Below are positions 10,601-64,000 of a stretch of 64,000 nt of DNA, in pieces (position 1 is the stretch's first letter; each line of letters starts with the position of its first letter). The notes under the pieces were generated by a model that did not search any database, was not told where the DNA came from, and worked only from the letters and a program-made list of their open reading frames with translations. Source of the DNA: an uncultured Bacteroidota bacterium (GTDB lineage Bacteria; Bacteroidota; Bacteroidia; Flavobacteriales; Flavobacteriaceae); NCBI GenBank assembly GCA_902561795.1, contig CACERG010000002.1, positions 1 to 64,000 on the forward strand, read 5' to 3'. A program made the translations under genes and the position numbers.

Positions 10601-13600
10601 ATTGACGAGACTACTATCGTGGTTACAAACCCGGGCTGTAATGCTAACGATGGGAGTATAAGACTAGATGACGGTGGATTTACAATTACTGGAGGTTCAG
10701 CAGGGAATATTGGAGATTACTCAAATCTTACGTTTTTGTGGACAAGAAGTGGGGGTGGAACATTTAATACACCAAACATTTCAGGTCTTTCACCTGCTGA
10801 TTATACACTTACAGTTACAGATAATTTATGCAATACTTTATTTATTACCTCGAATCCAATTACACTTCAAGATTCAACTGACTTTACTGTAACAAATGCG
10901 GTGGATAATTCTACTATTTCAAACTGTTCAGACGGTCATTTACAAGTTTCAGTTGCTGGAGGTTCTGGTAATTTTAGTTATAGATGGACAGACCAGAACG
11001 GAGTCATAAGAGGTACAACAAATCGAATTGAAGATTTAGAAGCAGGAACATACACTCTTCTTGTAGAAGACACTACAACAGGATGTAATCAGCAATTTAC
11101 CTATACAATTACTGGCTCTACAGGCCCACTAAGAATGATAAATCCAATTGCTGTAAATCAAGCAAATTTTGAAACTACTGATATTATTTGTAGCGGTGAA
11201 AGTACAGGTAAATTTGAAGTTGAATTTACAGGTGGTAATCCACCGTATCAATATTCATTAAATGGAGGGGCATATCAAGGAGCAGGGTCAGGGTTCTCAA
11301 CTAAAACCGTAACTGTAACAACGGGAGGTGCAAGTGCTACAATAGTTTCTTATACAACACAACTTTTAACCGTAGATACTTTAGAAGGAGGAACTTATTC
11401 AGTAAAAATAAAAGATAGCGGACTGTGCACGGACAATGCAGGAAATACAATTGAATTAAATCTTGGATCTGTAACAATTACTGAACCGGACCCACTAGAA
11501 ATAGGTATTAATTCAGCAAGCACTGATGAAATCAATTGTTCTGAAGGTATTCAAGGTTCCTTATCAGTAATTATTGGGGGTGGGACGATTACTGCAGATA
11601 CTCCTTATAGCGTATTATGGGAACTATATGGACCAGATGGACAAGTACTTTATAAAAGAACCACTTCAGGCTCACCGTCAGACCCTGATGACTTAACCAT
11701 AACAGGTCTTGATTATGCAGGTGACTACACGGTAACAGTTACAGATGCGAATGGTTGTACAACTAGTGAAATAATTACATTAGAAGATGGTTCTGATGAA
11801 GATCCATTTACTGTAGGTGAGACTCCTACAGTTACTCAACCAGGTTGTAATTCAGAAGAGACAGGATCTATTGAGCTTGAAATGAGCGGAGGCGTACAAC
11901 CCTACGATATAAAATGGTATAAACTTTCGGTAGCCCAAGAAAGTGCTACCTCTTCTTCTACAAATTCGTCGTCAACAATAGAGTTTTCAGACGGAGGTTA
12001 TGTGAGTATGAATAAAGACGGGTTCTATTTAATAGATAATCTTGAAGCTGGAAAATATAGAGCCATAATTACTGATGCAAGTGGTTGTCAGATTTTCTCC
12101 AGATCTGGTCTTATAAAATCAAATACCTTTAATATGATAAGTCAAAGGATTTATAATAAAGAAGTTATTGACTGTGATTCAGGAACTGTAGAGGCTGACT
12201 TCTCATTTCAATTATCGGGTACATCTCTCGCATACAATATTTATTTAGATGGTGAGGCAATTTATGGTGGAAATTCAGGACAAATAAGTGGAACAACTGT
12301 TGTGAGCAGTCCAACGTTTGCAAACAGCATTATTAAGCAAGGAAGTACATTTGTAATTAGAGGGCTAAGTGAAGGAAGGCATGTTGTTGAAGCACAGGAC
12401 GCATCTAATCCTGCATGTTCTATAGATTATGCATTTGATATTGAAACCTACGTTCCGATTACATTTGAAGGACAATTAGAATATGAATTTGATATTTGCG
12501 AAAGCACCTATCCTTTCGAATTGGATACAGCTTCAATTCTTGGAGGTAATCCAATTATAGATGATGAAGATAATGTGATATATAATTTAAGGTGGACCTT
12601 TACCCCACTAGATCCTAATGAGCCAGGGGCAAGTTTCATAGGTCGTACTTCATTTGACGCTGGACGAGGTACCTACCAATTAATTATATCTGATGGCACT
12701 TGTGAATCAGAACCGATAGATTTTGTATTTAGTGGTGAAGTGGATATCTTATCAATAAGTGGCTTATTAACTGATGAGGAAGTTTCCAAACCTGTAAGTT
12801 GTGAGTTAGGCGCACAGGATGGTAGAATTTCAATTCAAATATCTGGTGGACAAGAGCCTTACGATATCACATGGGAATTACTTGATCCTACCCAAATATC
12901 ACTTACTCCTCCAACTGGTGGTACTTCTCCCACCAATCCTTGGATTGAATTACCTGATTATCGAGGTTTTACAACCTTAAATGATTTAGCACCAGGATTA
13001 TATCGATATAGAATTACAGGCGGTGGTGGCTGCCCTGACGATAACCTTTTCAACGAATTAGAAGGTGAAATTAGCGTTGATGACGACAATACCCTAGTTA
13101 TAACTGACGGTCCTTACATAGATCCAAAACTTTGTGAAGGATTACCAGGACTATTAATTTTAGATGCCGTTGATAATTCATCAACCTCATCCTCATCATT
13201 AAACTTCTTCTACATTAATACAAAAGGTACCGAAGATACTAGTGACGACGGCGCTCCAGTAGCTCTTAACGGAAATACTACAAAATTAGATGAAGATACT
13301 TATCAAATCCTGGTTGAAACTCCATTTGAATACGGTAAAATTGTCGTGACTACTAATGATGGTTGCGGAAGAGAGGTTGAATTTAATTTGGCTCTTGGAA
13401 ATCCATTTTTCTCATATACTTCTCCTTCTTTCGAAGAAGCAGGAGAGATTCCGGCGAGAGAAACTGTCACATTTACAGATGAATCAGAGGGAGAATTTTC
13501 TAGGCTGGAATGGGATTTTGGTGATAATTCGGAGCCACAAGTTATAAATGTATCAGGTACATCCTCTGGGGTTACACAAGTAACTCACGTTTATGGTAAT

Positions 13601-51874: not shown

Positions 51875-52606
51875 TTGACAGCAACAAAATACAAGATAAT
51901 ATTTTTAGCTTTTTTTCTGTTATCAAAAATTAATGCACAAAAAATAGAATCAAAGGAAAAAAAAACAAATTACCTTGAACCAGAAATAGTTATTCCAGGG
52001 AATTTTTCTTCGCCACCTAGTGATGCAATTGTACTTTTTGATGGATCTAATTTTTCTTCCTGGCATCATTCAAAATCAAAAGAGCCTGTTAAATGGAGAC
52101 TGAATAATGATAAATCCTTTACAATCAAACCTGGAACTGGAAGTATTGAAACCAGGAAAGAACATGGGTCTGTTCAGCTTCATATAGAATGGAAATCACC
52201 AATAGAAAATAAAGGTGAAGGGCAGTCGAGAGGAAATAGTGGAATCTTTTTCCAAGGAAGATATGAGGTTCAAGTTTTAAATAGTTACCAAAACAGAACA
52301 TATCCTGATGGACAAGCAGGATCTATATATAAACAATATATTCCTCTTGTAAATTCAATGCGACCAACAGGGGAATGGCAGGTTTATGATATTGTTTTTA
52401 ATGCACCAAAGTATAATAATAATGGAGATATTATAAAGTCAGGAAGTTTTACTGTTTTTCATAATGGAGTTTTAATTCAAAATAATGTTGAAATTAAAAG
52501 ACCTACGATGAGTATAGAAAAAGCTACTAGAAAGACATTGATGCTTCAAGATCATGACAAAAACGGTACAGTTAGCTACAGAAATATTTGGGTGCGTAAG
52601 ATATAA
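51875..52606 (+). CDS. DUF1080 (3-keto-disaccharide hydrolase family) exported protein
   Basis: A 243-residue protein with a signal peptide ('IIFLAFFLLSKINAQ') and one DUF1080/PF06439 concanavalin-like beta-sandwich ('DAIVLFDGSNFSSWHH', 'EHGSVQLHIEWKSP', 'RGNSGIFFQGRYEVQVLNSY', 'LMLQDHDKNGTVSYRNIWVRKI'). Characterised members hydrolyse 3-keto-glycosides made by sugar oxidoreductases. The only start ahead of the signal peptide is TTG at 51875, directly after an in-frame stop. It is about 60% similar by eye to the following gene but lacks that protein's insertion before the last strand. Catalytic residues could not be assigned. Confidence 0.9.
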   Translation: MTATKYKIIFLAFFLLSKINAQKIESKEKKTNYLEPEIVIPGNFSSPPSDAIVLFDGSNFSSWHHSKSKEPVKWRLNNDKSFTIKPGTGSIETRKEHGSVQLHIEWKSPIENKGEGQSRGNSGIFFQGRYEVQVLNSYQNRTYPDGQAGSIYKQYIPLVNSMRPTGEWQVYDIVFNAPKYNNNGDIIKSGSFTVFHNGVLIQNNVEIKRPTMSIEKATRKTLMLQDHDKNGTVSYRNIWVRKI

Positions 52607-52683
52607 TTAACAGTTATTATTTAAATTTTAATTATTAGGGTTAAATCAATAAAATTTTAGAAGTGAACAAAAATTAAATTATA

Positions 52684-53493
52684 ATGAAAATCAAACTATT
52701 TATATTCCTATTTTTTCTCTCGAAACTAATTTTTTCACAGAGTCAGATTGATAAAAAAAAATATGATTCAATTATGAAATACTGGTTAGAACTTGCAAAA
52801 AAGTATGAAGTTTGGGATCCCGAACCAAAAAAAATTGAGCCAGGTATTTATGGATCACCACCAAGTGATGCAATAGTTCTTTTTGATGGAAATGGATTTT
52901 TAAATTGGCATCACTCAATCACAAAAGAGCCTGTCAAATGGTTTTTAAATGACGACAAATCAATGACAGTAAATGAAGGCAGTGGAAGTATAGAAACAAA
53001 ACTCGAGCATGGTTCTATTCAATTACATGTGGAATGGAAAGTTCCTGAAAAAGTTACAGGGGAAGGACAACTAAGGGGCAATAGTGGTATTTATCTACAA
53101 AGAAGGTATGAAGTTCAGGTTTTGGACAGTTACAATAATAGAACATATTCAAATGGGCAAGCAGCTTCTATTTATAAACAAAGTATGCCTTTGGTAAATG
53201 CATCGCGAGCCCCAGGTGAATGGCAATCTTACGATATAATATTTAATGAACCATTATATGATAATAATGGAAATCAAATCCAAGCTGGTACCATAACAAT
53301 ATTTCACAATGGTATTTTGGTTCAAAATAATTTTAAAATTAAGGGAACTACAAGTTTTATAGGAATGCATGAAACAAGCAAAGATGCGTTTCCTTTAGAC
53401 GGTGTAAAAGGGGGTGCACATAGGTCTCTATTAATACAAGATCACGCGGGTGGAGGTGTTTCTTATCGAAATATTTGGATGCGAAAGATTTAA
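52684..53493 (+). CDS. DUF1080 (3-keto-disaccharide hydrolase family) exported protein, second paralogue
   Basis: A 269-residue paralogue of the preceding protein with a signal peptide ('LFIFLFFLSKLIFSQ'), a charged spacer ('KKYDSIMKYWLELAKKYEV'), then the DUF1080 domain ('DAIVLFDGNGFLNWHH', 'RGNSGIYLQRRYEVQVLDSY', 'RSLLIQDHAGGGVSYRNIWMRKI'). It keeps a 20-residue loop ('GMHETSKDAFPLDGVKGGAH') that the first copy has lost. The pair probably arose by tandem duplication and may differ in substrate. A strong bidirectional terminator follows. Confidence 0.92.
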   Translation: MKIKLFIFLFFLSKLIFSQSQIDKKKYDSIMKYWLELAKKYEVWDPEPKKIEPGIYGSPPSDAIVLFDGNGFLNWHHSITKEPVKWFLNDDKSMTVNEGSGSIETKLEHGSIQLHVEWKVPEKVTGEGQLRGNSGIYLQRRYEVQVLDSYNNRTYSNGQAASIYKQSMPLVNASRAPGEWQSYDIIFNEPLYDNNGNQIQAGTITIFHNGILVQNNFKIKGTTSFIGMHETSKDAFPLDGVKGGAHRSLLIQDHAGGGVSYRNIWMRKI

Positions 53494-53496
53494 ATG

Positions 53497-53521
53497 AACC
53501 CTGCTTTTTAGGCAGGGTTTT
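53497..53521. terminator. Bidirectional intrinsic terminator between convergent genes
   Basis: AACCCTGC (53497-53504) pairs with GCAGGGTT (53512-53519) around a seven-base loop and is followed by TTTT on the plus strand. It sits between the DUF1080 stop and the end of the convergent oxidoreductase gene. Confidence 0.85.
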
Positions 53522-53538
53522 ATTAATTTGAAAAAATT

Positions 53539-54987
53539 CTATACTTGAAAACCTTCCCTGTATTTTCTAGTTACAAATTGATTAGCAGCTTCCAAGTTTG
53601 TAATTTTCATATTATCACCATCCCACAAAAGTTTCTTTCTAGCAAAAAATTCTTTTGTGTTTTGATCTCTTAACATGTAACTTCTGATAGCAAGATTACC
53701 CATTAGAACTGTTTCTGTCATTGGTCCGGCATAATCGAAAGATGATGTTAATGATTTGTGTTCTTTACTGTTGAACCCTGCTTTACAAGCATCAACCCAT
53801 TTTCTTTGATGACCATATTCAGGCTCATCAAATTTTTCCACTTCAGGTCCAAAGTCAGTAGACCCATCATTTAAATAAAGTTTTGGCATTAAGGGTGAGC
53901 TATCATTAATATTTGTTGATATAACTCCTTTTTCTCCGATAATCAAAACTCCATTTTCACTATTTTTTCCTCCAATATCATTATTTGCAGGAATTACTTC
54001 TGGGTGCGATGGTCTAATTCCACCGTCACTCCATGTCATTTTGATTGGTGATTTACTTTTTATAGTTTCGTCAAAACTAATAGTTATGAATGACGAAGGT
54101 GGGCAGCCTTCAGGATTATAATCTGCCGACCATGCTCTAGAATAAACATTCCCAACACTACATTCTGCCGATGTTGGATATTTTAAATTAAGAGTCCTAA
54201 AGGGAATGTCAATTAGGTGGCAACCAACGTCTCCTAATGCACCAGTTCCATACTCCCACCATCCTCTCCAGCTAAATGGGTGCATATATGGTGTAAAAGG
54301 TTTCTCTTTAGCTGGACCTAACCACATATTCCAATTTAATGAGTCAGGTTTAAGACTATTATCTGGTTTTGGCATCGGAACTCCTTGCGGCCATATAGGT
54401 CTGTTTGTCCAAATTTTTACATCTGTTATTTTACCTAACTTACCTGAGTCAACCCAATTGTGTACCATATTTAAATAAGGATTAGAAGCACCTTGGTTTC
54501 CCATTTGAGTAACAACTTTTTGTTTTCTCGCCATTTCAGTAAGAAGTCTTGCCTCACGAATATTATGGGCCATAGGTTTTTGAATATAAACATGCTTACC
54601 CCTTTCCATCGCATAAATTCCAGCAGGGGCATGGACATGGTCTGGAGTGGAAATTGTAACAGCATCTATACTTTTTTGCTTATCTAGCATTTTCCTATAG
54701 TCATCATAAAGTTTAGCCTTAGGAAATTTTTTTACTGAGTGTTTTGCATCCCCAGAAAAATCTACATCACAAAGAGCAACTACTCTTTCACGGCCTCTTA
54801 CGTAAGAGTTATTTATATCACTTCTTCCTTTACCACCGGCACCAATAGCAGCTATATGTAATTGGTCACTTGGAGCGGTATAACCTTTCCCACCGAGGAC
54901 ATTTCTTGGTACTATAAATATTGAAGAGGCTGCTACACCAGTTTTTATAAAACTGCGCCTTGAAGATTTTTGTTTCTTTGGTTTCAT
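53539..54987 (-). CDS. Gfo/Idh/MocA-family oxidoreductase with Tat signal
   Basis: A 482-residue NAD(P)-dependent oxidoreductase. The twin-arginine signal 'SRRSFIKTGVAASSIFIVP' indicates export folded with cofactor. The Rossmann domain has 'LHIAAIGAGGKG', 'ALCDVD', 'DAVTISTPDHVHAP' and 'HVYIQKPMAHN' in place of the usual EKP (Lys retained); the C-terminal domain has 'WRGWWEYGTGALGDVGCHLID'. Family members of this exported type act on sugars, some oxidising them at C3, which fits the convergent DUF1080 hydrolases. The substrate is inferred. Confidence 0.93.
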   Translation of the reverse strand: MKPKKQKSSRRSFIKTGVAASSIFIVPRNVLGGKGYTAPSDQLHIAAIGAGGKGRSDINNSYVRGRERVVALCDVDFSGDAKHSVKKFPKAKLYDDYRKMLDKQKSIDAVTISTPDHVHAPAGIYAMERGKHVYIQKPMAHNIREARLLTEMARKQKVVTQMGNQGASNPYLNMVHNWVDSGKLGKITDVKIWTNRPIWPQGVPMPKPDNSLKPDSLNWNMWLGPAKEKPFTPYMHPFSWRGWWEYGTGALGDVGCHLIDIPFRTLNLKYPTSAECSVGNVYSRAWSADYNPEGCPPSSFITISFDETIKSKSPIKMTWSDGGIRPSHPEVIPANNDIGGKNSENGVLIIGEKGVISTNINDSSPLMPKLYLNDGSTDFGPEVEKFDEPEYGHQRKWVDACKAGFNSKEHKSLTSSFDYAGPMTETVLMGNLAIRSYMLRDQNTKEFFARKKLLWDGDNMKITNLEAANQFVTRKYREGFQV

Positions 54988-55103
54988 TTTTATTCTTTAT
55001 TTAGTCAATTCCTAATAAAGATAGTTAATTTTTAAAAAAAATTAAAACTCTCTTGAAGCCTTTAAATACAGAAAATCATATATTCAATTTAGGTTTCTAT
55101 TTT

Positions 55104-55111
55104 TATATTTG
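55104..55111 (+). promoter_or_regulatory. Candidate -7 element for the 55143-57652 pair
   Basis: TATATTTG matches TAnnTTTG, 31 bases before the ATG at 55143. There is no TTG at the normal -33 distance. The rest of the 155-base gap is AT-rich without other features. Confidence 0.4.
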
Positions 55112-55142
55112 AATTAGCTTAGTGAATTCTTTTTTAAATCCC

Positions 55143-55559
55143 ATGAAAATTTACTTATTCGTTGTTTATTTTTCTTTTTTTTCCCTTGCATTTTCTCAAA
55201 GAGGAATTACAGGTGATAAAACATTCAGTTCAAGATTTCCTGAAGATAAATTTAACGAGATTTCAAACGCGTCATTAGAAATAGTCAATGAAGTTGATCA
55301 TGACATAATTGTTGTAATTAGGGATCAAAGAAAAAAATATATCCGTCACGTTTATATTAGAAATAAAGAAAAATTTAGATTTGATAATTTACCTATTACG
55401 CGCATATATGTTCAATTTAAGTCAAAAGAATTTTATTTTGAAGATTATGAAAGAACAACAATAAACTTTGGGGATCAACATATTTTTAATTTTTATTTTG
55501 ATCCAAGAGAACAAGAAAACTATTTTTTAATAACAGAGGAAGAGTTTTTTAAACCATAA
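55143..55559 (+). CDS. Exported protein of unknown function
   Basis: About 138 residues from ATG at 55143 (the track's GTG at 55122 only adds residues ahead of the signal peptide). 'IYLFVVYFSFFSLAFSQ' is a signal peptide. The mature part is beta-rich and charged: 'NASLEIVNEVDHDIIVVIRDQRKKYIRHVYIRN', 'EKFRFDNLPITRIYVQFKSKEFYFEDYERT', then a Phe/Glu-rich end. I do not recognise the family; the pattern resembles small periplasmic beta-sandwich proteins. It precedes the esterase gene by 20 bases and is probably co-transcribed with it. Confidence 0.72.
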   Translation: MKIYLFVVYFSFFSLAFSQRGITGDKTFSSRFPEDKFNEISNASLEIVNEVDHDIIVVIRDQRKKYIRHVYIRNKEKFRFDNLPITRIYVQFKSKEFYFEDYERTTINFGDQHIFNFYFDPREQENYFLITEEEFFKP

Positions 55560-55579
55560 ATTACAATCAGATTTTAGAT

Positions 55580-57652
55580 ATGTGTTTGTTTTTAAAAAAA
55601 ATAATGTTTTCATTTTTTTTATTTTTTTGTCTTCTTTCATGCTCTGAAAAATCAACAAATAGCTTAATAGTTGCACCACTTTTTTCTGATCATATGGTAT
55701 TGCAACAAAAAACTAAAGTACCAATATGGGGACAAGGTGAACCTGGAGACTCCATATTTGTAAGTTCATCTTGGTATGAAAAATCATCCACAACAGTTGG
55801 TCAAGATGGAAATTGGAAGATGTTTTTAAAAACTCCGCCTTATGGAGGGCCATACAAATTGAATATTTCTTCAACAACAGAGGAAATTAATTTAGAGGAC
55901 GTTCTAGTTGGAGAGGTATGGTTAGCTTCTGGCCAGTCTAACATGGAATATCCAATTAAAGCTAGAATACTTAATCAAAAAAAGGAAATTAAAAATTCAA
56001 ATTATCAAAATATTAGAATGTTTTCTGTGCCAAGAAACTTAAATGGACAAAACATATATTCAGCAAATTGGAAAATTTCAAATCCCAAAAACGTTAAGGA
56101 TTTCAGTGCAGTTGCTTATTTTTTTGCTCGTAAAATTCATAAAGAATTAGATATTCCTGTTGGAATTATAAATAGTTCTTGGGGAGGTACTCGAGTAGAA
56201 GCTTGGACAAGTATTGAAAAATTAGCAGATATCGCTGAGTCAGAAATAGAGGCTAAAGGCATAATTAAAAAAGGTGGTCTAACAAAGATTTTTATGGCTT
56301 ATGACTCAATTAATCTAAAAAATCAAAAAATAAATGAGGTTTTTTTAAATGCAAAAGGATATAAATTACCTCAAACTATCCAAGAATGGGAATCATTGAC
56401 CTTGAATGACTTAGAATACTCAAAATCAGATTTTGATGATGATAGTTGGGATAAGATTGAAGTAAATAAAGAAAAAAAGGATTTTTTAACATTCGAAGAT
56501 GTGTTCAGTAAAAATCTTTTTGCTGAAGATGGCGTAGCATGGTTTAGAAAAAAAATTTTTATAGATGATCCAAATCAATCATATGAGTTATTAAATTTTT
56601 CTGGGATTGGTGATTACGATTATTCTTACATAAATAACCAGCTTATTGGAGTAACATTAGCTTGTTGTCTTGATAGAAAATATAAGATACCCAAGGGGTT
56701 GTTAAAAAAAGGTGAAAATATTTTGGCAATTCGAGTCATTAACACAGAACAAAAAGGGGGATTTAAAGGGCCATTATATTTGGAAAGTAATACTAATCGG
56801 ATTGATCTAAACCAAGGAATTTGGAGATTCAAACACATCGCATTTTACCTTGGGGCTGTAATTCAAAAGCATAATTTTTTAACAAATGATCTTTTAACAA
56901 ATTTTTCAATTTTAAAATCTAATTTGAAAACCTTTTATTCAAAAGATCCAAACTATTATGGAGTTCTATACGAAACAATGATAAAGCCACTTGTCCCATA
57001 TAGTATAAAGGGTTTCCTTTGGTATCAGGGGGAAAGTAATGTTGCAAATTATTCTGAATATTATAATTTATTCACGGGAATGATATCTGACTGGAGAGAT
57101 AAATGGAATTCTGATTTGCCTTTTTATTATGTTCAGATTGCTCCCTTTTCCTACAATGATAAAGAAAATGGATGTAATGATTGCCTATCATATCTTTTAA
57201 GAGAAGCTCAACTTAAAAGTTCGAATTTTAAAAAAACTGGAATGGTTGTTACTTCGGATATTGGAGAACAATTTGATATTCACCCTGCAAATAAACAAGA
57301 AGTTGGAGAGAGACTTGCTAAATTGGCTCTTATAAATGATTATAATCGTAAAGATATTAGTGGATATGGACCAATATATTCAAATCAAATAAAATATGAA
57401 TACTATATTGATTTATATTTTAAAAATATTGGTTCAGGCCTTAAACAAAAAGATTCACTAAAGGATTTCGAAATCGCAGGTAGTGACAAATTTTTTTATC
57501 CAGCTCAAGCAAACATAATTGAAAATAAAATAAGAGTGTCCTCCAAAAAGGTCAAAAACCCTGAATATGTACGCTACGGATGGAAAAACTATTTTGAGGC
57601 AACGCTTTTTAACAACGAAGGATTTCCTGCCTCATCATTTAGAACTCCTTAA
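55580..57652 (+). CDS. Sialate O-acetylesterase-like SGNH esterase, lipoprotein
   Basis: A 690-residue exported carbohydrate esterase. Lipobox 'CLLSCSEKS' follows a signal sequence; Met at 55604 could be the true start since the first eight residues precede it. An N-terminal beta-sandwich ('FSDHMVLQQKTKVPIWGQGEPG') leads to the SGNH domain with 'WLASGQSNMEYP' (Ser120), a mid-protein jelly-roll insertion ('WFRKKIFIDDP'), 'GFLWYQGESN', and the C-terminal 'DIHPANKQEVGERLAKLA' with the Asp-His pair. It would remove acetyl groups from glycans. Beside GH16 and DUF1080 genes, plant or algal polysaccharide is more likely the target than sialic acid. Confidence 0.92.
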   Translation: MCLFLKKIMFSFFLFFCLLSCSEKSTNSLIVAPLFSDHMVLQQKTKVPIWGQGEPGDSIFVSSSWYEKSSTTVGQDGNWKMFLKTPPYGGPYKLNISSTTEEINLEDVLVGEVWLASGQSNMEYPIKARILNQKKEIKNSNYQNIRMFSVPRNLNGQNIYSANWKISNPKNVKDFSAVAYFFARKIHKELDIPVGIINSSWGGTRVEAWTSIEKLADIAESEIEAKGIIKKGGLTKIFMAYDSINLKNQKINEVFLNAKGYKLPQTIQEWESLTLNDLEYSKSDFDDDSWDKIEVNKEKKDFLTFEDVFSKNLFAEDGVAWFRKKIFIDDPNQSYELLNFSGIGDYDYSYINNQLIGVTLACCLDRKYKIPKGLLKKGENILAIRVINTEQKGGFKGPLYLESNTNRIDLNQGIWRFKHIAFYLGAVIQKHNFLTNDLLTNFSILKSNLKTFYSKDPNYYGVLYETMIKPLVPYSIKGFLWYQGESNVANYSEYYNLFTGMISDWRDKWNSDLPFYYVQIAPFSYNDKENGCNDCLSYLLREAQLKSSNFKKTGMVVTSDIGEQFDIHPANKQEVGERLAKLALINDYNRKDISGYGPIYSNQIKYEYYIDLYFKNIGSGLKQKDSLKDFEIAGSDKFFYPAQANIIENKIRVSSKKVKNPEYVRYGWKNYFEATLFNNEGFPASSFRTP

Positions 57653-57654
57653 AA

Positions 57655-58449
57655 TTATTTTTGTTGATAAACTCTCACAAAATCAACTTCCATCTGATCT
57701 TCAGAAAAATTGGGATCAATTGAGCCTCCTAGATTCCCCCCCATAGCAATATTTAATATAATGAATTGATCATTAACATAAGGCCAATTTTTAGGAGTTT
57801 TATTTTTTGGTTCGTACGTGAAATAATGGTTTCCATCAACAAAAAACTTGAGGTTTTCTTTTGTCCACTCTAAGCCATAAGTGTGAAAATTTTCAGTCAC
57901 ATCGGTAACATTTATTTGTTTAACAATTGTATTATCCCCATATGTATCTGGTGTATGAACTGCACATTGAACCATTTCAAAGTCTTCAAAAAGTTGCTCC
58001 ATAATATCTATTTCACCACAAGCTGGCCATATTACAGTTTCGAAATTGCTTCCCAACGTCCAAATTGCTGGCCATGTCCCTTTTGCTCTTGGTAGTTTTG
58101 CACTTACCTCAACTTTTCCATAAGTAAATGATAATTTTGAATTTAATCTTGCAGAGGTATACAATTTAGTTGTACCGGAAGATTGAAACTCTTCCTTTTT
58201 AGCGACTATTTTTAGGGTCCCGTTACTAACATAAGCGTTATCAATTCTATCGGTGTAGTGTTGTAATTCATTATTATACCAGCTACCATTATTTGGCGCA
58301 ATAGTTTCCAAGAACCATTTTGTAGAATCTAATCTTTTTTTCTCCTGATTAAATTCGTCACTCCAAATAAGTTGATAAGATTTTTCTTTTTTAACATCTG
58401 TTTTGCAAGATGTCAAGACAATAAAGATTATAAAGAGTAATTTTTTCAT
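57655..58449 (-). CDS. Glycoside hydrolase family 16 lipoprotein (beta-glucanase type)
   Basis: A 264-residue enzyme with lipobox 'VLTSCKTD' and a GH16 jelly roll. The active-site strand 'CGEIDIMEQ' gives nucleophile Glu146, Asp148 and acid/base Glu151. Flanking 'RAKGTWPAIWTLG' and 'YGLEWTKENLKFFVDG' match laminarinases and other beta-1,3-glucanases, and no agarase- or carrageenase-specific insertion was noticed. It would cut laminarin-like polysaccharide at the cell surface. Stops two bases from the convergent esterase gene; the small membrane gene lies 23 bases upstream. Confidence 0.94.
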   Translation of the reverse strand: MKKLLFIIFIVLTSCKTDVKKEKSYQLIWSDEFNQEKKRLDSTKWFLETIAPNNGSWYNNELQHYTDRIDNAYVSNGTLKIVAKKEEFQSSGTTKLYTSARLNSKLSFTYGKVEVSAKLPRAKGTWPAIWTLGSNFETVIWPACGEIDIMEQLFEDFEMVQCAVHTPDTYGDNTIVKQINVTDVTENFHTYGLEWTKENLKFFVDGNHYFTYEPKNKTPKNWPYVNDQFIILNIAMGGNLGGSIDPNFSEDQMEVDFVRVYQQK

Positions 58450-58472
58450 TTTCTAAATATATAGTTTTAAAT

Positions 58473-58658
58473 CTATTTTGATAAAAAGTTAAATAGCATC
58501 CACACATAAAAAATTAGAGTTGCAAATGTAGCCATTAGTCCAAAAAATTTGACTAACTCTTTTTCAGTTGTTTTGTTTATAAATTCTAGTGTAGGTTTAA
58601 TTCCTTTGGTAAAAATAAATAATCCAAAAATACCTAAAACATATCCCAATAATTCCAT
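58473..58658 (-). CDS. Small two-helix membrane protein of unknown function
   Basis: A 61-residue protein with two hydrophobic segments ('LLGYVLGIFGLFIFTKG', 'FFGLMATFATLIFYVWMLFNFL') separated by a charged stretch 'EFINKTTEKELVKF'. It begins with ATG and sits 23 bases upstream of the GH16 gene on the same strand, which makes it more likely to be a real gene than a shadow. No family recognised. Confidence 0.55.
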   Translation of the reverse strand: MELLGYVLGIFGLFIFTKGIKPTLEFINKTTEKELVKFFGLMATFATLIFYVWMLFNFLSK

Positions 58659-58732
58659 TTAGAAGTAAAATACATACTTTTTATTTACATTAAAATTAGT
58701 ATATCTAATTTTATATGAAATGAAAATTAAAT

Positions 58733-59260
58733 ATGATTTCAAATGAAATTATTTGTAACCCTATAAATGACAGAAGAAAAAGACTTTTATTGGGACGAAA
58801 AGGCAATTCAGAGCTGCTAGTAATAGGATTAAATCCAAGTACTGCGAACGAATCTTCTATGGATCCTACTTCAAAAAATATAGAATCTATTGCAATTCAA
58901 AATGGATTTGATGGTTGGTGGATAATAAATCTTTATCCGGGCAGGTATTCTAAACCTAAATATTTGCCTAAAAAGCCAAACAAAATTTATTTAAAAGAAA
59001 ATCTTGAAATCATTAATAAAATTGTAAAAAATAAAGATTTTAAGATTAAGAATGTTCTTTTATGCTGGGGGAACAATGTAAATAGACATGATTATCTTAG
59101 AAATCAAATGGAAATAATTTTAAAAATTTTAAAAGAGTCAAATTTTACTATTTCTTGTATTGGGATTACTAAACTTGGTAATCCATTCCATCCAAGTCCA
59201 CTTTCTATTAATAGGTTTTTAGGAGGAGTCAATGAATTAAAATTAAAAGATTTTAAATAA
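58733..59260 (+). CDS. DUF1643 domain protein
   Basis: A 175-residue protein with the DUF1643 hallmark 'VIGLNPSTANESSMDPTSKNIE', then 'GWWIINLYPGRYSKP' and 'VLLCWGNN', ending 'KLGNPFHPSPLS'. The family is widespread, sometimes on plasmids and near mobile genes; its function is unknown, though the fold resembles uracil-DNA glycosylase-like proteins. No signal peptide, so cytoplasmic. It stands 50 bases before the second Gfo/Idh/MocA gene and is probably not related to the sugar pathway. Confidence 0.87.
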   Translation: MISNEIICNPINDRRKRLLLGRKGNSELLVIGLNPSTANESSMDPTSKNIESIAIQNGFDGWWIINLYPGRYSKPKYLPKKPNKIYLKENLEIINKIVKNKDFKIKNVLLCWGNNVNRHDYLRNQMEIILKILKESNFTISCIGITKLGNPFHPSPLSINRFLGGVNELKLKDFK

Positions 59261-59310
59261 GCACAAATTTTTAATTTTAATGTATATTATATGATTGAAA
59301 CCAAAAATAA

Positions 59311-60672
59311 ATGAATAAAAACAACAATAGCCGTAGAAACTTTATAAAAAAAATATCTGTTTTACCTGGGTTAACTATTTTGCCTAGACATGTTTTAGGT
59401 GGAAAGGGTTACAAGGCACCAAGTGACAAGCTTAATATTGCTGGTGTAGGTGTTAGGAAATACGGAATGGGATCTGGAAATTTACATGCTTGTAGAGAAG
59501 AGAACATTGTTGCTTTATGTGATGTTGATTTCAGACAATCAGCATCGACATTTAAAAAATATCCCAAAGCAAAAGTATATAAGGATTTCAGAAAAATGTT
59601 TGAAAAACAAAAAGATATTGATGCTGTTATTGTTGCCACACCTGATCATAATCATGCTGTAATTACAATGATGGCAATTAAATTAGGCAAGCATGTTTAT
59701 TGTCAAAAACCACTTACTCACACCGTTTTTGAGGCGAGGAAAATTACTGAAGCAGCAAGAGAATACAAAGTGCAAACACAAATGGGTAATCAAGGCAGAT
59801 CTTCTGATGAAATAAGAAGTCTAAAGGAATGGATAAACGATAATGCGATTGGACCTGTTAGAGAGATTCATGCATGGACGGATAGGCCTGTTGGAGGACA
59901 TGCTTGGGATACATTTGCTGTGAAAGCTATGTCTAAAGAAAAGCCACCGGTTCCTGAAGGGCTTGATTGGGATCTTTGGCTTGGACCAGCTCCTTATCGT
60001 AATTATCATCCTGATTATCATCCTTTGTCATGGAGAGCGTGGTTAGATTTTGGTACGGGTTCTATGGGAGATATGGGATGCCATATTTTAGACCCTTCAT
60101 TTTACGCACTTGATTTAGGTTCACCGACAGAAATACAAGCAACTTCTACTCATTGGATTCCTGAAATTTCAACTCAAACATATCCCTCTGCTTCAATAGT
60201 AAGGATGAAGTTTCCGAAAAGAGGTAAGCATCCAGAAGTCAGCCTTACTTGGTCTGATGGTCGAATTTTACCTCCTATTCCAGAGGAATTTAAACCAGGA
60301 GAAAGGTTTACTTTAAGTGGAGCAATGTTGGTTGGTGACAAAGGTAAAATAATACATGATTCTCATGGGGCTAGTGGTTTAAGAATCTTACCAGAGCAGA
60401 AAATGAATGAATACGTAAAACCTAAAAAGACAATTCCCCGTGTTAAAACTTCTCATGAAGGTGATTGGATACGTGCTTGCAAGGACGGAAAAAAAGCTTC
60501 ATCAAATTTTGACTATGGCGGACCTTTAACTGAAATGGCTCTTTTGGGGATGATTGCTATTCGTTTAAAAGACCAAAGATTAATTTGGGATTCTAAAAAT
60601 CTAAGATTTACCAATAATCAAATGGCCAATGAATTAGTTCATAAGCAATATAGAAAAGGTTGGTCTCTTTAA
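59311..60672 (+). CDS. Gfo/Idh/MocA-family oxidoreductase with Tat signal, first gene of a catabolic run
   Basis: A 453-residue exported oxidoreductase: twin-arginine signal 'SRRNFIKKISVLPGLTILP', then 'HVLGGKGYKAPSDKLNIAGVG', 'ALCDVDF', 'DAVIVATPDHNHAV', and 'HVYCQKPLTHTVFEARKITEAA' with the catalytic Lys in QKP instead of EKP. The C-terminal domain carries 'WRAWLDFGTGSMGDMGCHILD'. It shares the 'VLGGKGYxAPSD' segment after the Tat signal with the gene at 53539, so the two are paralogues. The HUMPS gene follows after 16 bases, putting it at the head of a tight operon. Confidence 0.93.
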   Translation: MNKNNNSRRNFIKKISVLPGLTILPRHVLGGKGYKAPSDKLNIAGVGVRKYGMGSGNLHACREENIVALCDVDFRQSASTFKKYPKAKVYKDFRKMFEKQKDIDAVIVATPDHNHAVITMMAIKLGKHVYCQKPLTHTVFEARKITEAAREYKVQTQMGNQGRSSDEIRSLKEWINDNAIGPVREIHAWTDRPVGGHAWDTFAVKAMSKEKPPVPEGLDWDLWLGPAPYRNYHPDYHPLSWRAWLDFGTGSMGDMGCHILDPSFYALDLGSPTEIQATSTHWIPEISTQTYPSASIVRMKFPKRGKHPEVSLTWSDGRILPPIPEEFKPGERFTLSGAMLVGDKGKIIHDSHGASGLRILPEQKMNEYVKPKKTIPRVKTSHEGDWIRACKDGKKASSNFDYGGPLTEMALLGMIAIRLKDQRLIWDSKNLRFTNNQMANELVHKQYRKGWSL

Positions 60673-60688
60673 CAAACTAATTCAGAAA

Positions 60689-61393
60689 ATGAATCCTTTA
60701 GTTCAAATATCTCTTGATTTAACAAATATAGATGAGGCCATAGAAACCGCATCAATGGCTTTAAGAGCTGGTGTAGACTGGCTAGAAGCTGGTACACCTT
60801 TAATTTTAGCTGAAGGACTGCATGGTGTAAGAAATTTAAGAGATTCATTTCCTAACGTACCCATAGTTGCAGATTTAAAGACTATGGATGGAGGTTACCT
60901 TGAGGCAGAGATGATGGCAAAGGCTGGGGCTACTCACGTAGTTGTAATGGCTAGAGCTCATCCTGAAACTATCAAATGCGTTGTTCAAGCAGGAAAAGAT
61001 TTTGGTATCAAAGTAATGGGAGATAATATGATCAGTGATAATATGATTGACGGTGCTAAATTATTAGAAGATTTAGGATGTGATTATATTATTCATCATA
61101 TAGGGTATGATGAAAGAAGAGGTATTAGTGCACAAGGAGGAAAAATGCCAAGTCCGCTAGATCAGCTGCTAGAAGTTGTAAAAGCAGTAGAAGTCCCTGT
61201 TCAAGCTGTAGGCGGATTAACTCTTGAGCAAGCAATAAAGTGTCCTCAGTATGGAGCACCTTTAGTTGTTTTAGGGGCTCCGCTTGCAATCGATGCAGAT
61301 TCATTTAAAACCGCGGATGGAAATTTAGAATCATCTCTGAAAAAAATATGTAATGCTATTCATTCTCAAAAAGTATTATACAATAAAAATTAG
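60689..61393 (+). CDS. HUMPS-family decarboxylase/aldolase (3-keto-L-gulonate-6-P decarboxylase or hexulose-6-P synthase-like)
   Basis: A 234-residue TIM-barrel protein of the orotidine-phosphate-decarboxylase suprafamily. Active-site residues can be placed: Asp10 ('QISLD'), Glu33 ('WLEAGTPLI'), and the DxKxxD motif 'ADLKTMDGG' (Asp62, Lys64, Asp67), the numbers reported for UlaD-type decarboxylases; 'HHIGYDERRG' matches the 'HTGYD' of hexulose-phosphate synthases. The reaction could be decarboxylation of a 3-keto-hexonate phosphate or a formaldehyde aldol reaction. Its stop touches the dehydrogenase start. No sugar kinase is visible, so the source of a phosphorylated substrate is unclear. 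Confidence 0.9.
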   Translation: MNPLVQISLDLTNIDEAIETASMALRAGVDWLEAGTPLILAEGLHGVRNLRDSFPNVPIVADLKTMDGGYLEAEMMAKAGATHVVVMARAHPETIKCVVQAGKDFGIKVMGDNMISDNMIDGAKLLEDLGCDYIIHHIGYDERRGISAQGGKMPSPLDQLLEVVKAVEVPVQAVGGLTLEQAIKCPQYGAPLVVLGAPLAIDADSFKTADGNLESSLKKICNAIHSQKVLYNKN

Positions 61394-62431
61394 ATGTTGT
61401 TTCCAAAAAAAATACCAGCAGTTGTAAATTACTCAAGTATAAAAGGGTCAGTCGAGTTAAGAGAAATCAAATTACCTGAAATAGGCGATCATGATGTTTT
61501 ACTCCAAGTAGAAAATGTTGGTGTATGTGGTTCTGACCTTCATCAATGGACTTCAGAACATAGTTGGAAAGTAAATTACCCTGTTGTTTTGGGACATGAA
61601 TTTGGAGGGTTGATTACTAAAATAGGAGATAAAGTAAAAAAATGGAAAGTTGGAGATCGAGTAGTCAGCGAAACTGCCGCTGTTATTGATAATGAAAGTC
61701 CTTTAACTAAAGCGGGTCTTTATAATCTTGACCCTACAAGAAAAGGTTTTGGTTATGGTGTTGATGGTGCTATGACCAAATACGTTAGAACACCTGCTAG
61801 GTGTCTTCATCATATTCCTGAAAATTTATCATTTGAGGAAGCTTGTTTGACAGAGCCATGTTGTGTTGCATATAATGCTGTTGTAGTAAACTCAAAAATA
61901 AAACCAGGAGACAAAGTTCTAGTTATAGGACCAGGAACAATTGGAATTCTTTGTGCCATAATTGCAAAAATATGTGGGGCATATGTTGCCGTCCTAGGTC
62001 TTGAAAGTGATAGGTCTAGACTTGCTAAACTGAAAAATTACAATATTAAATCGATAGTAAAAAATGTTTCAAGTTGGACTAAAGAAAAAGATGGTCTTGG
62101 AGTTGATTTAGTAATTGATGCAGCTGGTGTTAGCCATACTCTTAAAATTGCTATGGATAATGTAAGACCAAATGGGCAGATAACTAAGGTTGGCTGGGGT
62201 CCACAACCATTGGATTTTTCTTTAGATATCATTGTTCAAAAAAATATTCGCTTGCAAGGAAGTTTTAGTCACAATTGGCCTATTTGGGAAAAAGTTATTC
62301 AATTGTTGTCTGAAGGAACTTTAAATGTAAAACCAATTATTGGCGGGGTTTGGACAATCGAAGAATGGGAAAAGGCATTTAGTGAAATGCATTCAGGAAA
62401 AATTATAAAAAGTATTTTAAAACCTATTTGA
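61394..62431 (+). CDS. Zinc-type alcohol/polyol dehydrogenase (MDR) lacking structural-zinc cysteines
   Basis: A 345-residue medium-chain dehydrogenase, probably oxidising a sugar, polyol or sugar acid with NAD(P). The catalytic zinc ligands are present: Cys45 in 'GVCGSDLHQW', His68-Glu69 in 'LGHEFGG', with 'LTEPCCVAYNAV' downstream; the nucleotide fold has 'VLVIGPGTIGILCA'. The lobe that normally binds a structural zinc through four Cys reads 'AAVIDNESPLTKAGLYNLDP', with no cysteine at all. The neighbours abut on both sides with no spacer, so it is an integral operon member. Confidence 0.93.
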   Translation: MLFPKKIPAVVNYSSIKGSVELREIKLPEIGDHDVLLQVENVGVCGSDLHQWTSEHSWKVNYPVVLGHEFGGLITKIGDKVKKWKVGDRVVSETAAVIDNESPLTKAGLYNLDPTRKGFGYGVDGAMTKYVRTPARCLHHIPENLSFEEACLTEPCCVAYNAVVVNSKIKPGDKVLVIGPGTIGILCAIIAKICGAYVAVLGLESDRSRLAKLKNYNIKSIVKNVSSWTKEKDGLGVDLVIDAAGVSHTLKIAMDNVRPNGQITKVGWGPQPLDFSLDIIVQKNIRLQGSFSHNWPIWEKVIQLLSEGTLNVKPIIGGVWTIEEWEKAFSEMHSGKIIKSILKPI

Positions 62432-63223
62432 ATGAGGTTAAAAGATAAAGTCATTATAATTACAGGAAGTACAATGGGAATTGGTAAGGCAATAGCAATA
62501 AAATTTGTTTCTGAGGGAGCCAAAGTTGTAATTCATGGTTTAGAGAAAGAATTAGCTGAGAATCTTAGAAAGATGCTAGGAAATGAAAATTGTATTTTTC
62601 ATATTGAAGACCTTTCAAATAGTGGATGTTCTGATAGATTAGTGTCAATAGCAATAAAAAAATGGAAAAAAATAGACGGGATTGTAAATAATGCTGCTAT
62701 GGTAATTAATTCCAATATTGATAATACTGATGAAAAATTCCTAAACGACGTATTAAAAGTAAATACGTTTGCTCCGTTTTTTCTAATTAAGTCTGCTTTA
62801 CCATATTTAACAAAATCTAGGGGCTCAGTATTAAACATTGGATCTGTAAATGCATGGAGTGGAGAACCAAATTTATTAGCTTACAGTATTTCAAAGGGAG
62901 CTTTAATGACTATGACACGTAATTTAGGTGATAGTCTTAATAGAAAAAATAATGTGAGAGTTAATCAAATTAATCCAGGATGGGTTCTAACTGAAAAGGA
63001 GGTTCAGCGAAAAAAAAATCATGGTCTTAAACATGATTGGTACAAAAACCTGCCAAATATTTATGCTCCCTCAGGTAGAATTCTTTTACCTGAAGAAATT
63101 GCATCATTAGCGACTTATTGGCTTTCAGATGAGAGTGGTCCTGTCAGTGGACAGGTAATTGATCTTGAACAATACCCGATGATTGGAAGAAATATCTCTA
63201 AGGACCCACTAAATTTAACTTAG
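62432..63223 (+). CDS. Short-chain dehydrogenase/reductase
   Basis: A 263-residue classical SDR: cofactor motif 'TGSTMGIGKA' (TGxxxGxG), 'VNNAAM', catalytic Ser138 ('NIGSVNAWSG'), Tyr151 and Lys155 ('YSISK'), and the C-terminal 'DESGPVSGQVIDLEQ'. SDRs of this type interconvert hydroxyl and keto groups on sugars or sugar acids. It starts at the base after the MDR stop, and the isomerase gene begins 26 bases later, so it belongs to the same transcript. Substrate unknown. Confidence 0.94.
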   Translation: MRLKDKVIIITGSTMGIGKAIAIKFVSEGAKVVIHGLEKELAENLRKMLGNENCIFHIEDLSNSGCSDRLVSIAIKKWKKIDGIVNNAAMVINSNIDNTDEKFLNDVLKVNTFAPFFLIKSALPYLTKSRGSVLNIGSVNAWSGEPNLLAYSISKGALMTMTRNLGDSLNRKNNVRVNQINPGWVLTEKEVQRKKNHGLKHDWYKNLPNIYAPSGRILLPEEIASLATYWLSDESGPVSGQVIDLEQYPMIGRNISKDPLNLT

Positions 63224-63249
63224 AAATGTTTTACAGTTAAACTTTTAAT

Positions 63250-64000
63250 ATGCCAAAATTAGCTGTTTTTCCAAAAGCATATATGAAAGCCTTGTGTAAG
63301 GACGGGTCCATGAAAATTTCAGAATGGATTTCACTAGCCTCAAAGCTTGATATTCAGGGATTAGAATGGTATGCAGGCTTTTTAGAAATGAGGGATAAAA
63401 CAAGATGGAAAGATTTCAAAAAAATGGTTGAAGATATTGGAAAAGAAATTCCAATGATGTGCTGTTCTCCAGATTTCACCCACCCTGACCAAAAATTTAG
63501 GGAAAAAGAAATCTTAAAGCAAAAACAATGGATAGATATGACAAATATTCTTGGAGGTAGCTACTGTAGGGTTTTATCTGGACAAAACAGACCTGGATTA
63601 TCTTTGGCGGATGGACTTCATTATGCATCACAATGTATTTCTGACTGTTTATCATATGCTGAAGAAAGAGGAATTACACTTGTTCTAGAGAATCACTATA
63701 AAGATGATTTTTGGAAATATCCAGAATTTGCCCAAAAAAAAGATGTTTTTAAATCTTTAGTAGAAAGTATCAATCATCCAAGTTTTGGTGTAAACTTTGA
63801 TCCAAGTAATGCTTTTTTAGCAGGAGAAGAACCGCTTGATCTTCTCTATTCCATATCTGATAAGGTTGTAACCATGCATGCAAGTGATAGATATCTAAAA
63901 TCGGGCACAATAGATGATTTAAAAAAAATTGATAGTGGTAAAATTGGCTATGCGAATATACTTAGTCATGGTGAGGTTGGTAAAGGGATGAATGATTATG
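63250..64000 (+). CDS. TIM-barrel sugar phosphate isomerase/epimerase, 5' part (runs off window)
   Basis: 250 codons are visible from ATG at 63250 ('MPKLAVFPKAYMKALC'); the frame is open at the right edge, so it was not in the ORF track. The sequence follows the AP endonuclease 2/xylose isomerase-like fold, with candidate metal ligands Glu in 'ITLVLENHY', Asp in 'GVNFDPSNAF', and His in 'VTMHASDRY'. Family members isomerise or epimerise keto-sugars. It is the fifth gene of the run starting with the Gfo/Idh/MocA protein. The lost 3' end probably covers the last 20 to 40 residues. Confidence 0.9.
   Translation, partial: MPKLAVFPKAYMKALCKDGSMKISEWISLASKLDIQGLEWYAGFLEMRDKTRWKDFKKMVEDIGKEIPMMCCSPDFTHPDQKFREKEILKQKQWIDMTNILGGSYCRVLSGQNRPGLSLADGLHYASQCISDCLSYAEERGITLVLENHYKDDFWKYPEFAQKKDVFKSLVESINHPSFGVNFDPSNAFLAGEEPLDLLYSISDKVVTMHASDRYLKSGTIDDLKKIDSGKIGYANILSHGEVGKGMNDY

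What the first reader, a model, noticed from the sequence alone, without database searches (positions are those of the whole stretch)
51875..64000. Candidate glycoside-oxidation (keto-sugar) catabolic locus without SusC/D or kinase
Within 12 kb lie two DUF1080 proteins, two Tat-exported Gfo/Idh/MocA oxidoreductases, an SGNH acetylesterase, GH16, a HUMPS decarboxylase/aldolase, an MDR, an SDR and a sugar isomerase. DUF1080 and Gfo/Idh/MocA are known partners in 3-keto-glycoside cleavage. Adding a HUMPS enzyme with two further dehydrogenases suggests a route in which the keto-sugar (or a sugar acid) is decarboxylated or retro-aldol cleaved. I know of no described pathway with this exact set. The substrate, the entry system and the phosphorylation step are all unseen, so this is a hypothesis from co-occurrence.
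Basis: partly seen in the sequence, partly recalled or inferred. Interest (0 to 1): 0.7.

Follow-up and report, generated by a model that had tools for sequence, protein, structure and literature searches.

The report
Conserved keto-sugar decarboxylation gene cassette
A set of four to five neighbouring genes, kept in the same order in three bacterial phyla and repeatedly found beside enzymes that oxidise and cut sugars, looks like an undescribed route that burns one carbon off an oxidised sugar to give a five-carbon sugar, which would answer where 'keto-sugars' go after they are made.

Summary
The genes are really there. Beyond the window edge the operon continues with an SMP-30 lactonase. What is conserved is not the 12-kb region but a cytosolic cassette, HUMPS–MDR–SDR–TIM barrel(–lactonase). 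It is colinear in Bacteroidota, Verrucomicrobiota and Planctomycetota, with the HUMPS protein 79–92% identical. The HUMPS enzyme keeps the family's catalytic residues but matches neither the UlaD nor the HxlA specificity signature, and hxlB or ulaF were never nearby. The link to keto-glycosides is independently supported. DUF1080 lies inside or directly beside the cassette in other families, and GMC/Gluconate_2-dh3 pairs or BT_2158-like Gfo enzymes recur beside it. All 11 HUMPS-positive genomes in a Bacteroidota sample carry DUF1080, against 149/381 others (p=4e-5). One cluster ends with a pentulose kinase, so phosphorylation probably comes last. Best reading: oxidation of an unphosphorylated (3-keto-)hexose to a 3-keto-aldonate, HUMPS decarboxylation to a pentulose, then epimerisation and phosphorylation. 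Substrate and reactions are inferred. DUF1080 is not coupled to the cassette within the window's own genus, and GH16 and the esterase are probably bystanders.

The parts
51875..52606 (+). DUF1080 (3-keto-disaccharide hydrolase family), exported; satellite gene, not part of the conserved core
   Evidence: PF06439 124 bits; signal-peptide-like N terminus; near the cassette only in a subclade of the genus
52684..53493 (+). second DUF1080 protein, exported; satellite
   Evidence: PF06439 105 bits; a single DUF1080 at this place in L014 and L122
53539..54987 (-). Gfo1: Tat-exported Gfo/Idh/MocA oxidoreductase, BT_2158 (glycoside 3-dehydrogenase)-like; satellite
   Evidence: NF058561 442 bits, below its 750-bit cut-off; 47-48% identical relatives beside the cassette in Spirosoma and G484
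55580..57652 (+). SASA-type acetylesterase, lipoprotein-like N terminus; satellite
   Evidence: PF03629 65 bits; 56% identical gene at the same place in L014 and L122 only
57655..58449 (-). GH16 lipoprotein-like; probable bystander
   Evidence: PF00722 90 bits; not found beside the cassette in any other locus
59311..60672 (+). Gfo2: Tat-exported BT_2158-like Gfo/Idh/MocA, first gene of the operon, 16 bp before HUMPS
   Evidence: NF058561 510 bits, below cut-off 750; kept at this place in 5 of 8 HUMPS+ genomes of the genus
60689..61393 (+). HUMPS enzyme, new subgroup: proposed 3-keto-aldonate decarboxylase; core gene
   Evidence: PF00215 78 bits; below all NCBIfam HPS/KGPDC cut-offs; active-site comparison; model closest to HPS and KGPDC
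61394..62431 (+). MDR: zinc medium-chain dehydrogenase, core gene
   Evidence: PF08240/PF00107; nearest solved relatives sorbitol and threonine dehydrogenases; catalytic-zinc motifs invariant in the family
62432..63223 (+). SDR: short-chain dehydrogenase, core gene
   Evidence: PF13561 147 bits; TGxxxGIG and YSxxKG motifs conserved
63250..64000 (+). xylose-isomerase-like TIM barrel (continues to 64134), core gene; proposed pentulose 3-epimerase or keto-glycal hydratase
   Evidence: PF01261 114 bits for the full 294 aa; putative metal ligands E147, D184, H210, E269 invariant (role inferred from the family); fold matches. Followed outside the window by an SMP-30 lactonase at 64174-65049 and PF10142 at 65062-66498

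Best explanation
A cytosolic cassette that removes one carbon oxidatively from an unphosphorylated hexose or 3-keto-hexose. One dehydrogenase (SDR or MDR) makes the aldonolactone and the SMP-30 lactonase opens it. If C3 has not already been oxidised in the periplasm by a Gfo or GMC enzyme, the other dehydrogenase makes the 3-keto-aldonate. The HUMPS enzyme then decarboxylates it through the family's enediolate to a pentulose: ribulose from a gluco-configured sugar, xylulose from a galacto-configured one. The TIM barrel 3-epimerises the pentulose and an FGGY kinase phosphorylates it into the pentose phosphate pathway. In many genomes the feed is the DUF1080 / 3-keto-glycoside system. Shown: the conserved cassette, the separate HUMPS subgroup and the repeated linkage. 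Inferred: every reaction, the order of steps and the substrate.
For: Cassette order is kept across three phyla and down to 57-67% HUMPS identity. The HUMPS protein keeps D10, E33, D62, K64, D67, H137 and the GG phosphate-loop motif, but has D112, Y140 and V174 where UlaD has E112, R139 and T169, and where HPS has D, I/T and A. UlaD-UlaE in E. coli is the same pair of folds working in sequence. DUF1080 is the gene directly before HUMPS in G484 and G268 and sits between MDR and SDR in G276. GMC oxidoreductases (62-65% identical to each other) with Gluconate_2-dh3 partners lie beside the cassette in G259, G268 and G484 in three different arrangements. The G268 cluster ends in an FGGY pentulose kinase, 661 bits against a cut-off of 408.7. 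HUMPS+ genomes are DUF1080+ in 11/11 against 149/381 (p=4e-5), at genus level 9/9 (p=0.0012).
Against: By sequence and in a FastTree tree the HUMPS protein sits with HPS (aldolase) rather than with KGPDC. No enzyme here has been assayed. Most Algoriphagus and Arenibacter cassettes have no DUF1080, Gfo or GMC gene within 8 kb. The lactonase is missing from many cassettes. DUF1080 copy number is unrelated to HUMPS inside the genus. The adjacency count is small: 3 seen against 0.23 expected within 2.5 kb, p=0.0016, and two of the three are from one family. Some Verrucomicrobiota have HUMPS without the other genes nearby.
Confidence: 0.42

Rival explanations
1. The HUMPS protein is an HPS-type aldolase that splits (or makes) a 3-hexulose, with formaldehyde as one partner, and the dehydrogenases act on the C1 or the polyol.
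For: Nearest characterised relative is a 3-hexulose-6-phosphate synthase (9lj9, 40% identity in the fold match); D112 as in HPS; true hxlA clusters also carry an MDR formaldehyde dehydrogenase.
Against: No hxlB isomerase near any of 107 loci; the MDR is only about 25% identical to the formaldehyde dehydrogenase of a real hxlA cluster and is closer to sorbitol/threonine dehydrogenases; score below the HPS cut-offs; the cassette recurs beside sugar-oxidation genes and no methylotrophy genes were seen.
Confidence: 0.17
2. A gulonate-type shunt like that of animals: a 3-keto-hexonate is decarboxylated to L-xylulose, then the SDR reduces it and the sorbitol-dehydrogenase-like MDR re-oxidises it to D-xylulose.
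For: MDR best solved relative is human sorbitol dehydrogenase; lactonase best solved relative is regucalcin/SMP-30, the animal gulonolactonase family; xylulokinase-type kinase in the genome.
Against: Leaves no step for the TIM barrel, which is in every full cassette; no hexonate 3-dehydrogenase would remain; SDR shows no particular closeness to L-xylulose reductase.
Confidence: 0.12
3. A keto-sugar interconversion route like E. coli YcjQRS or the levoglucosan Lgd pathway: MDR/SDR oxidise and reduce C3, the TIM barrel is a keto-epimerase or 2-hydroxy-3-keto-glucal hydratase, and the HUMPS protein has a side role.
For: YcjQ is an MDR and YcjR a PF01261-type barrel; the TIM model matches AtHYD, a 2-hydroxy-3-keto-glucal hydratase, at rank 6; in the Lgd pathway PF01261 proteins are eliminase and hydratase (PMC10066097).
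Against: TIM and YcjR show no significant sequence relation and MDR to YcjQ is remote; HUMPS is the most conserved gene of the set, so a side role is unlikely.
Confidence: 0.15
4. The cassette is an ordinary sugar-acid pathway and its nearness to DUF1080, Gfo and GMC genes only reflects that sugar genes cluster in carbohydrate-rich genomes.
For: Every genome searched in the genus has DUF1080 irrespective of the cassette (p=0.91); HUMPS+ genomes are mostly large and DUF1080-rich; most Algoriphagus loci lack such neighbours.
Against: DUF1080 is inside the operon in G276 and directly before HUMPS in G484 and G268; orthologous GMC genes accompany the cassette in different arrangements.
Confidence: 0.14

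Closest known systems
E. coli ulaDEF / sgbH-type 3-keto-L-gulonate 6-phosphate route
   Same: A HUMPS decarboxylase next to a PF01261 3-epimerase; same catalytic residues D11, E33, D62, K64, D67, H136
   Different: Here no phosphotransferase, no 4-epimerase (UlaF), KGPDC-specific E112/R139/T169 replaced, two dehydrogenases added, 29% identity
hxlAB ribulose-monophosphate formaldehyde pathway
   Same: HUMPS protein nearest to HPS; an MDR may lie beside hxlA
   Different: No hxlB; different MDR; below HPS cut-offs
DUF1080 3-keto-glycoside pathway (BT2157-BT2159; LacABC + DUF1080 of Caulobacter)
   Same: DUF1080, BT_2158-like Gfo and GMC/Gluconate_2-dh3 partners occur beside the cassette
   Different: [quoted passage not shown] no HUMPS step described
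Levoglucosan Lgd pathway
   Same: Gfo 3-dehydrogenase plus PF01261 barrels acting on 3-keto sugars
   Different: Ends by reducing 3-keto-glucose to glucose (PMC10066097); no HUMPS, SDR or lactonase
E. coli ycjQRS guloside/glucoside route
   Same: MDR + PF01261-type barrel + Gfo trio
   Different: No significant TIM similarity, remote MDR similarity, no HUMPS

Membership tests
HUMPS / OMP-decarboxylase suprafamily | (beta/alpha)8 fold with D, E, DxKxxD and His active-site set | tested here: met
   D10, E33, D62, K64, D67, H137 aligned and invariant in 12 sequences; model pLDDT 84 matches HPS/KGPDC first
3-keto-L-gulonate-6-phosphate decarboxylase (KGPDC) | E112, R139, T169 (UlaD numbering) and score above the family cut-off | tested here: not met
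   D, Y and V at these places; 65 and 86 bits against cut-offs 294 and 250
3-hexulose-6-phosphate synthase (HPS, HxlA) | score above HPS cut-off, hxlB partner | tested here: not met
   137.6 bits against 200; no hxlB in 107 loci
3-hexulose-6-phosphate synthase (HPS, HxlA) | formaldehyde-dependent aldol activity | not testable with these tools
   needs purified enzyme
3-keto-disaccharide hydrolase (PF06439, DUF1080) | profile match and export | tested here: met
   124 and 105 bits against 26.8; signal-like N termini by eye
BT_2158 glycoside 3-dehydrogenase | NCBIfam equivalog cut-off 750 bits | tested here: not met
   442 and 510 bits: related, not equivalog
Polysaccharide utilisation locus | SusC/SusD pair at the locus | tested here: not met
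   none recognised among the ORFs of window 48-64 kb or L002; SusD is present at the related locus L114
Xylose-isomerase-like TIM barrel (PF01261) | fold and E/D/H/E metal site | tested here: met
   114 bits; E147, D184, H210, E269 invariant; matches Art22, AtHYD, D-tagatose 3-epimerase, UlaE
Ketose 3-epimerase (within PF01261) | which reaction (epimerase, hydratase or eliminase) | tested here: inconclusive
   fold matches include D-tagatose 3-epimerase and a 2-hydroxy-3-keto-glucal hydratase at similar scores

The most novel reading that the evidence does not exclude
A widespread, undescribed 'decarboxylating' end-route for 3-keto sugars: the products of DUF1080/Gfo/GMC glycoside oxidation are oxidised to 3-keto-aldonates and decarboxylated, without prior phosphorylation, by a third functional class of HUMPS enzyme, giving pentulose plus CO2. 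It would be an unphosphorylated counterpart of the oxidative pentose phosphate pathway.
Probability: 0.3. Interest if true: 0.8.

Novelty: new variant of a known kind. Interest (0 to 1): 0.6.

Why it matters
The fate of the 3-keto sugar in the DUF1080 pathway is stated to be unknown in the literature read here (PMC9007349). A cassette kept at about 80% HUMPS identity in three phyla and repeatedly attached to that pathway gives a concrete, testable answer. If right, it adds a third reaction class to the HUMPS family and a route from glycosides to pentose phosphates that avoids hexokinase and glycolysis.

Tried and rejected
Window operon as a ulaD or hxlAB pathway: rejected (no partners, wrong residues). 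Formaldehyde-detox operon: not favoured (MDR unlike formaldehyde dehydrogenase, no hxlB). DUF1080 coupling within the genus: tested, none. Plasmid collection for annotated relatives: only distant hxlA (30-34% among the best hits). TIM to YcjR homology: none. Algoriphagus upstream genes (methyltransferase-like, dipeptidase-like and PEGA-like proteins, read by eye from their sequences) judged unrelated. GGT-like gene beside the Arenibacter cassette judged unrelated. Placement of L113 in the tree is unreliable, probably a strand error in my script. Papers: no 3-ketogluconate decarboxylase, and none linking HxlA-type proteins to this kind of locus, in the held library.
Full report
OBSERVATION. The 'sugar isomerase' is cut by the window end; it finishes at window position 64134 and is followed by an SMP-30/regucalcin-type lactonase (64174-65049), a PF10142 protein and, on the other strand, a GH3. 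From Gfo2 to the lactonase the genes are on one strand with gaps of 0-39 bp, so they read as one operon. No SusC/D or kinase was recognised within about 16 kb upstream or 18 kb downstream of the window end.

WHAT IS CONSERVED. The nearest relatives of the HUMPS protein in public genomes (79-92% identity) come from the window's own lineage, from Algoriphagus, Spirosoma, Larkinella, Arsenicibacter and Arenibacter, and from Verrucomicrobiota and Planctomycetota (the list is the best 80 of 561, so it is biased to close relatives). Around them the order HUMPS-MDR-SDR-TIM recurs on one strand, with the lactonase added in Algoriphagus and the window's genus. Of 107 loci, many on truncated contigs, 85 have the MDR on the same strand within 6 kb and 68 have all of MDR, SDR and TIM. 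The order holds in genomes where HUMPS is only 57-67% identical. An even sample of the phylum gave HUMPS in 12 of 393 Bacteroidota genomes, own genome included, and another gave 10 of 241 in the Verrucomicrobiota phylum; the gene is widespread but patchy. In the own genus 8 of 38 genomes have it, and Gfo2 precedes it in five of those eight.

WHAT IS NOT. The DUF1080s, Gfo1 and the SASA esterase accompany the cassette only in a subclade of the genus, and the GH16 was seen only in the window. All 37 genus genomes searched carry DUF1080 (1-11 copies); numbers do not differ between those with and without HUMPS (7.6 v. 7.4; p=0.91).

INDEPENDENT LINK TO KETO-GLYCOSIDES. Elsewhere the link reappears. 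A DUF1080 gene is directly upstream of HUMPS on the same strand in G484 and G268, and lies between MDR and SDR in G276. It is also close by on the opposite strand in G055 (3.5 kb) and in one Prosthecobacter MAG (0.9 kb). GMC oxidoreductases 62-65% identical to each other, with Gluconate_2-dh3 partners, stand beside the cassette in three different arrangements in G259, G268 and G484. BT_2158-like Gfo proteins stand beside it in the window's genus, in Spirosoma and in G484. In the phylum sample all 11 HUMPS+ genomes other than the window's are DUF1080+, against 149 of 381 HUMPS- (p=4e-5; by genus 9 of 9, p=0.0012). Eight HUMPS+ genomes taken from the loci have 15-41 DUF1080 copies each. Caveats: genome size and lifestyle confound the genome-level test; for adjacency, 3 were seen within 2.5 kb against 0.23 expected (p=0.0016, treating loci as independent, though two share a family).

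THE HUMPS ENZYME. It keeps the suprafamily's catalytic set but has D112/Y140/V174 where KGPDC has E/R/T and HPS has D/(I or T)/A. It scores below NCBI's cut-offs for HPS and for KGPDC. A FastTree tree puts it as its own clade next to an archaeal-type (PRK07028-like) HPS, and the AlphaFold model matches HPS first, then KGPDC. The significance of residues 112/139/169 for KGPDC v. HPS specificity is from established knowledge of UlaD mutants; the mutant structures 1xbx, 1xby and 1xbz carry just these changes. Invariant R89, R143, R144 and K207 are specific to this clade in the alignments seen. No hxlB or ulaF relative is near any of the 107 loci.

MECHANISM. The same two folds, HUMPS then PF01261 epimerase, work in series in E. 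coli ulaD-ulaE. Two dehydrogenases and a lactonase in front of them are what is needed to make a 3-keto-aldonate from a hexose. With C3 already oxidised in the periplasm by Gfo or GMC enzymes, only C1 oxidation is needed. Decarboxylation of 3-keto-gluconate would give D-ribulose, and of 3-keto-galactonate D-xylulose (stereochemistry by reasoning). The TIM model resembles non-phosphorylated ketose 3-epimerases and also the 2-hydroxy-3-keto-glucal hydratase AtHYD, so its step is open. The G268 cluster contains an FGGY pentulose kinase on the same strand (661 bits against 408.7), and the window's genome has a xylulokinase-type kinase elsewhere. Which dehydrogenase does which step, and the sugar itself, are not determined. 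In G484 a second cassette sits among six sulfatases and a 1033-aa ORF (SusC-like in size only, not searched), suggesting sulfated glycans as one source.

NOVELTY. In the held literature, 3-keto-glucose is reduced to glucose (PMC10066097) or the fate of the keto-sugar is called unknown (PMC9007349); no 3-ketogluconate decarboxylase turned up. Subscription papers on 3-keto-glycoside pathways are not in that library, so prior description cannot be excluded. I rate it a new variant of a known kind, with a plausible but unproven new pathway behind it.

Noticed in passing
window 2-14044: A 4,680-aa open reading frame with near-identical repeats ending in a gliding-motility/T9SS-like C terminus (read by eye, family not searched).
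   Followed up: no
L115 (G484:C11:103801-123800): HUMPS cassette embedded among six sulfatases, a ceramidase-like protein and a 1033-aa ORF; G484 carries two copies of the cassette.
   Followed up: partly
L150 (G000:C7 near 62.9 kb): Xylulokinase-type kinase divergently placed from another Tat-signal, PF01261-looking protein in the window's own genome.
   Followed up: partly
L135, L136, L143 (Verrucomicrobiota): HUMPS orthologues 72-84% identical with none of MDR, SDR or TIM found within about 10 kb: cassette dispersed or HUMPS acting alone.
   Followed up: no
window 58733-59260: DUF1643 gene sits between the satellite genes and Gfo2 and is kept there in L014 and L122 (73-74% identity); role unknown.
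   Followed up: no
L002:3062-4498: PF10142 (PhoPQ-related) protein follows the lactonase in the window's subclade, 97-98% identical among close relatives.
   Followed up: no
G000 whole genome: Eight DUF1080 proteins in a 1.73-Mb genome, a high density for such a small genome.
   Followed up: partly
L044, L061, L076: In Larkinella an HpcH/HpaI-type aldolase gene is divergent from HUMPS, and Spirosoma and Arsenicibacter have an ORF of similar size there; Arsenicibacter has an SSF symporter directly upstream, a candidate transporter.
   Followed up: no
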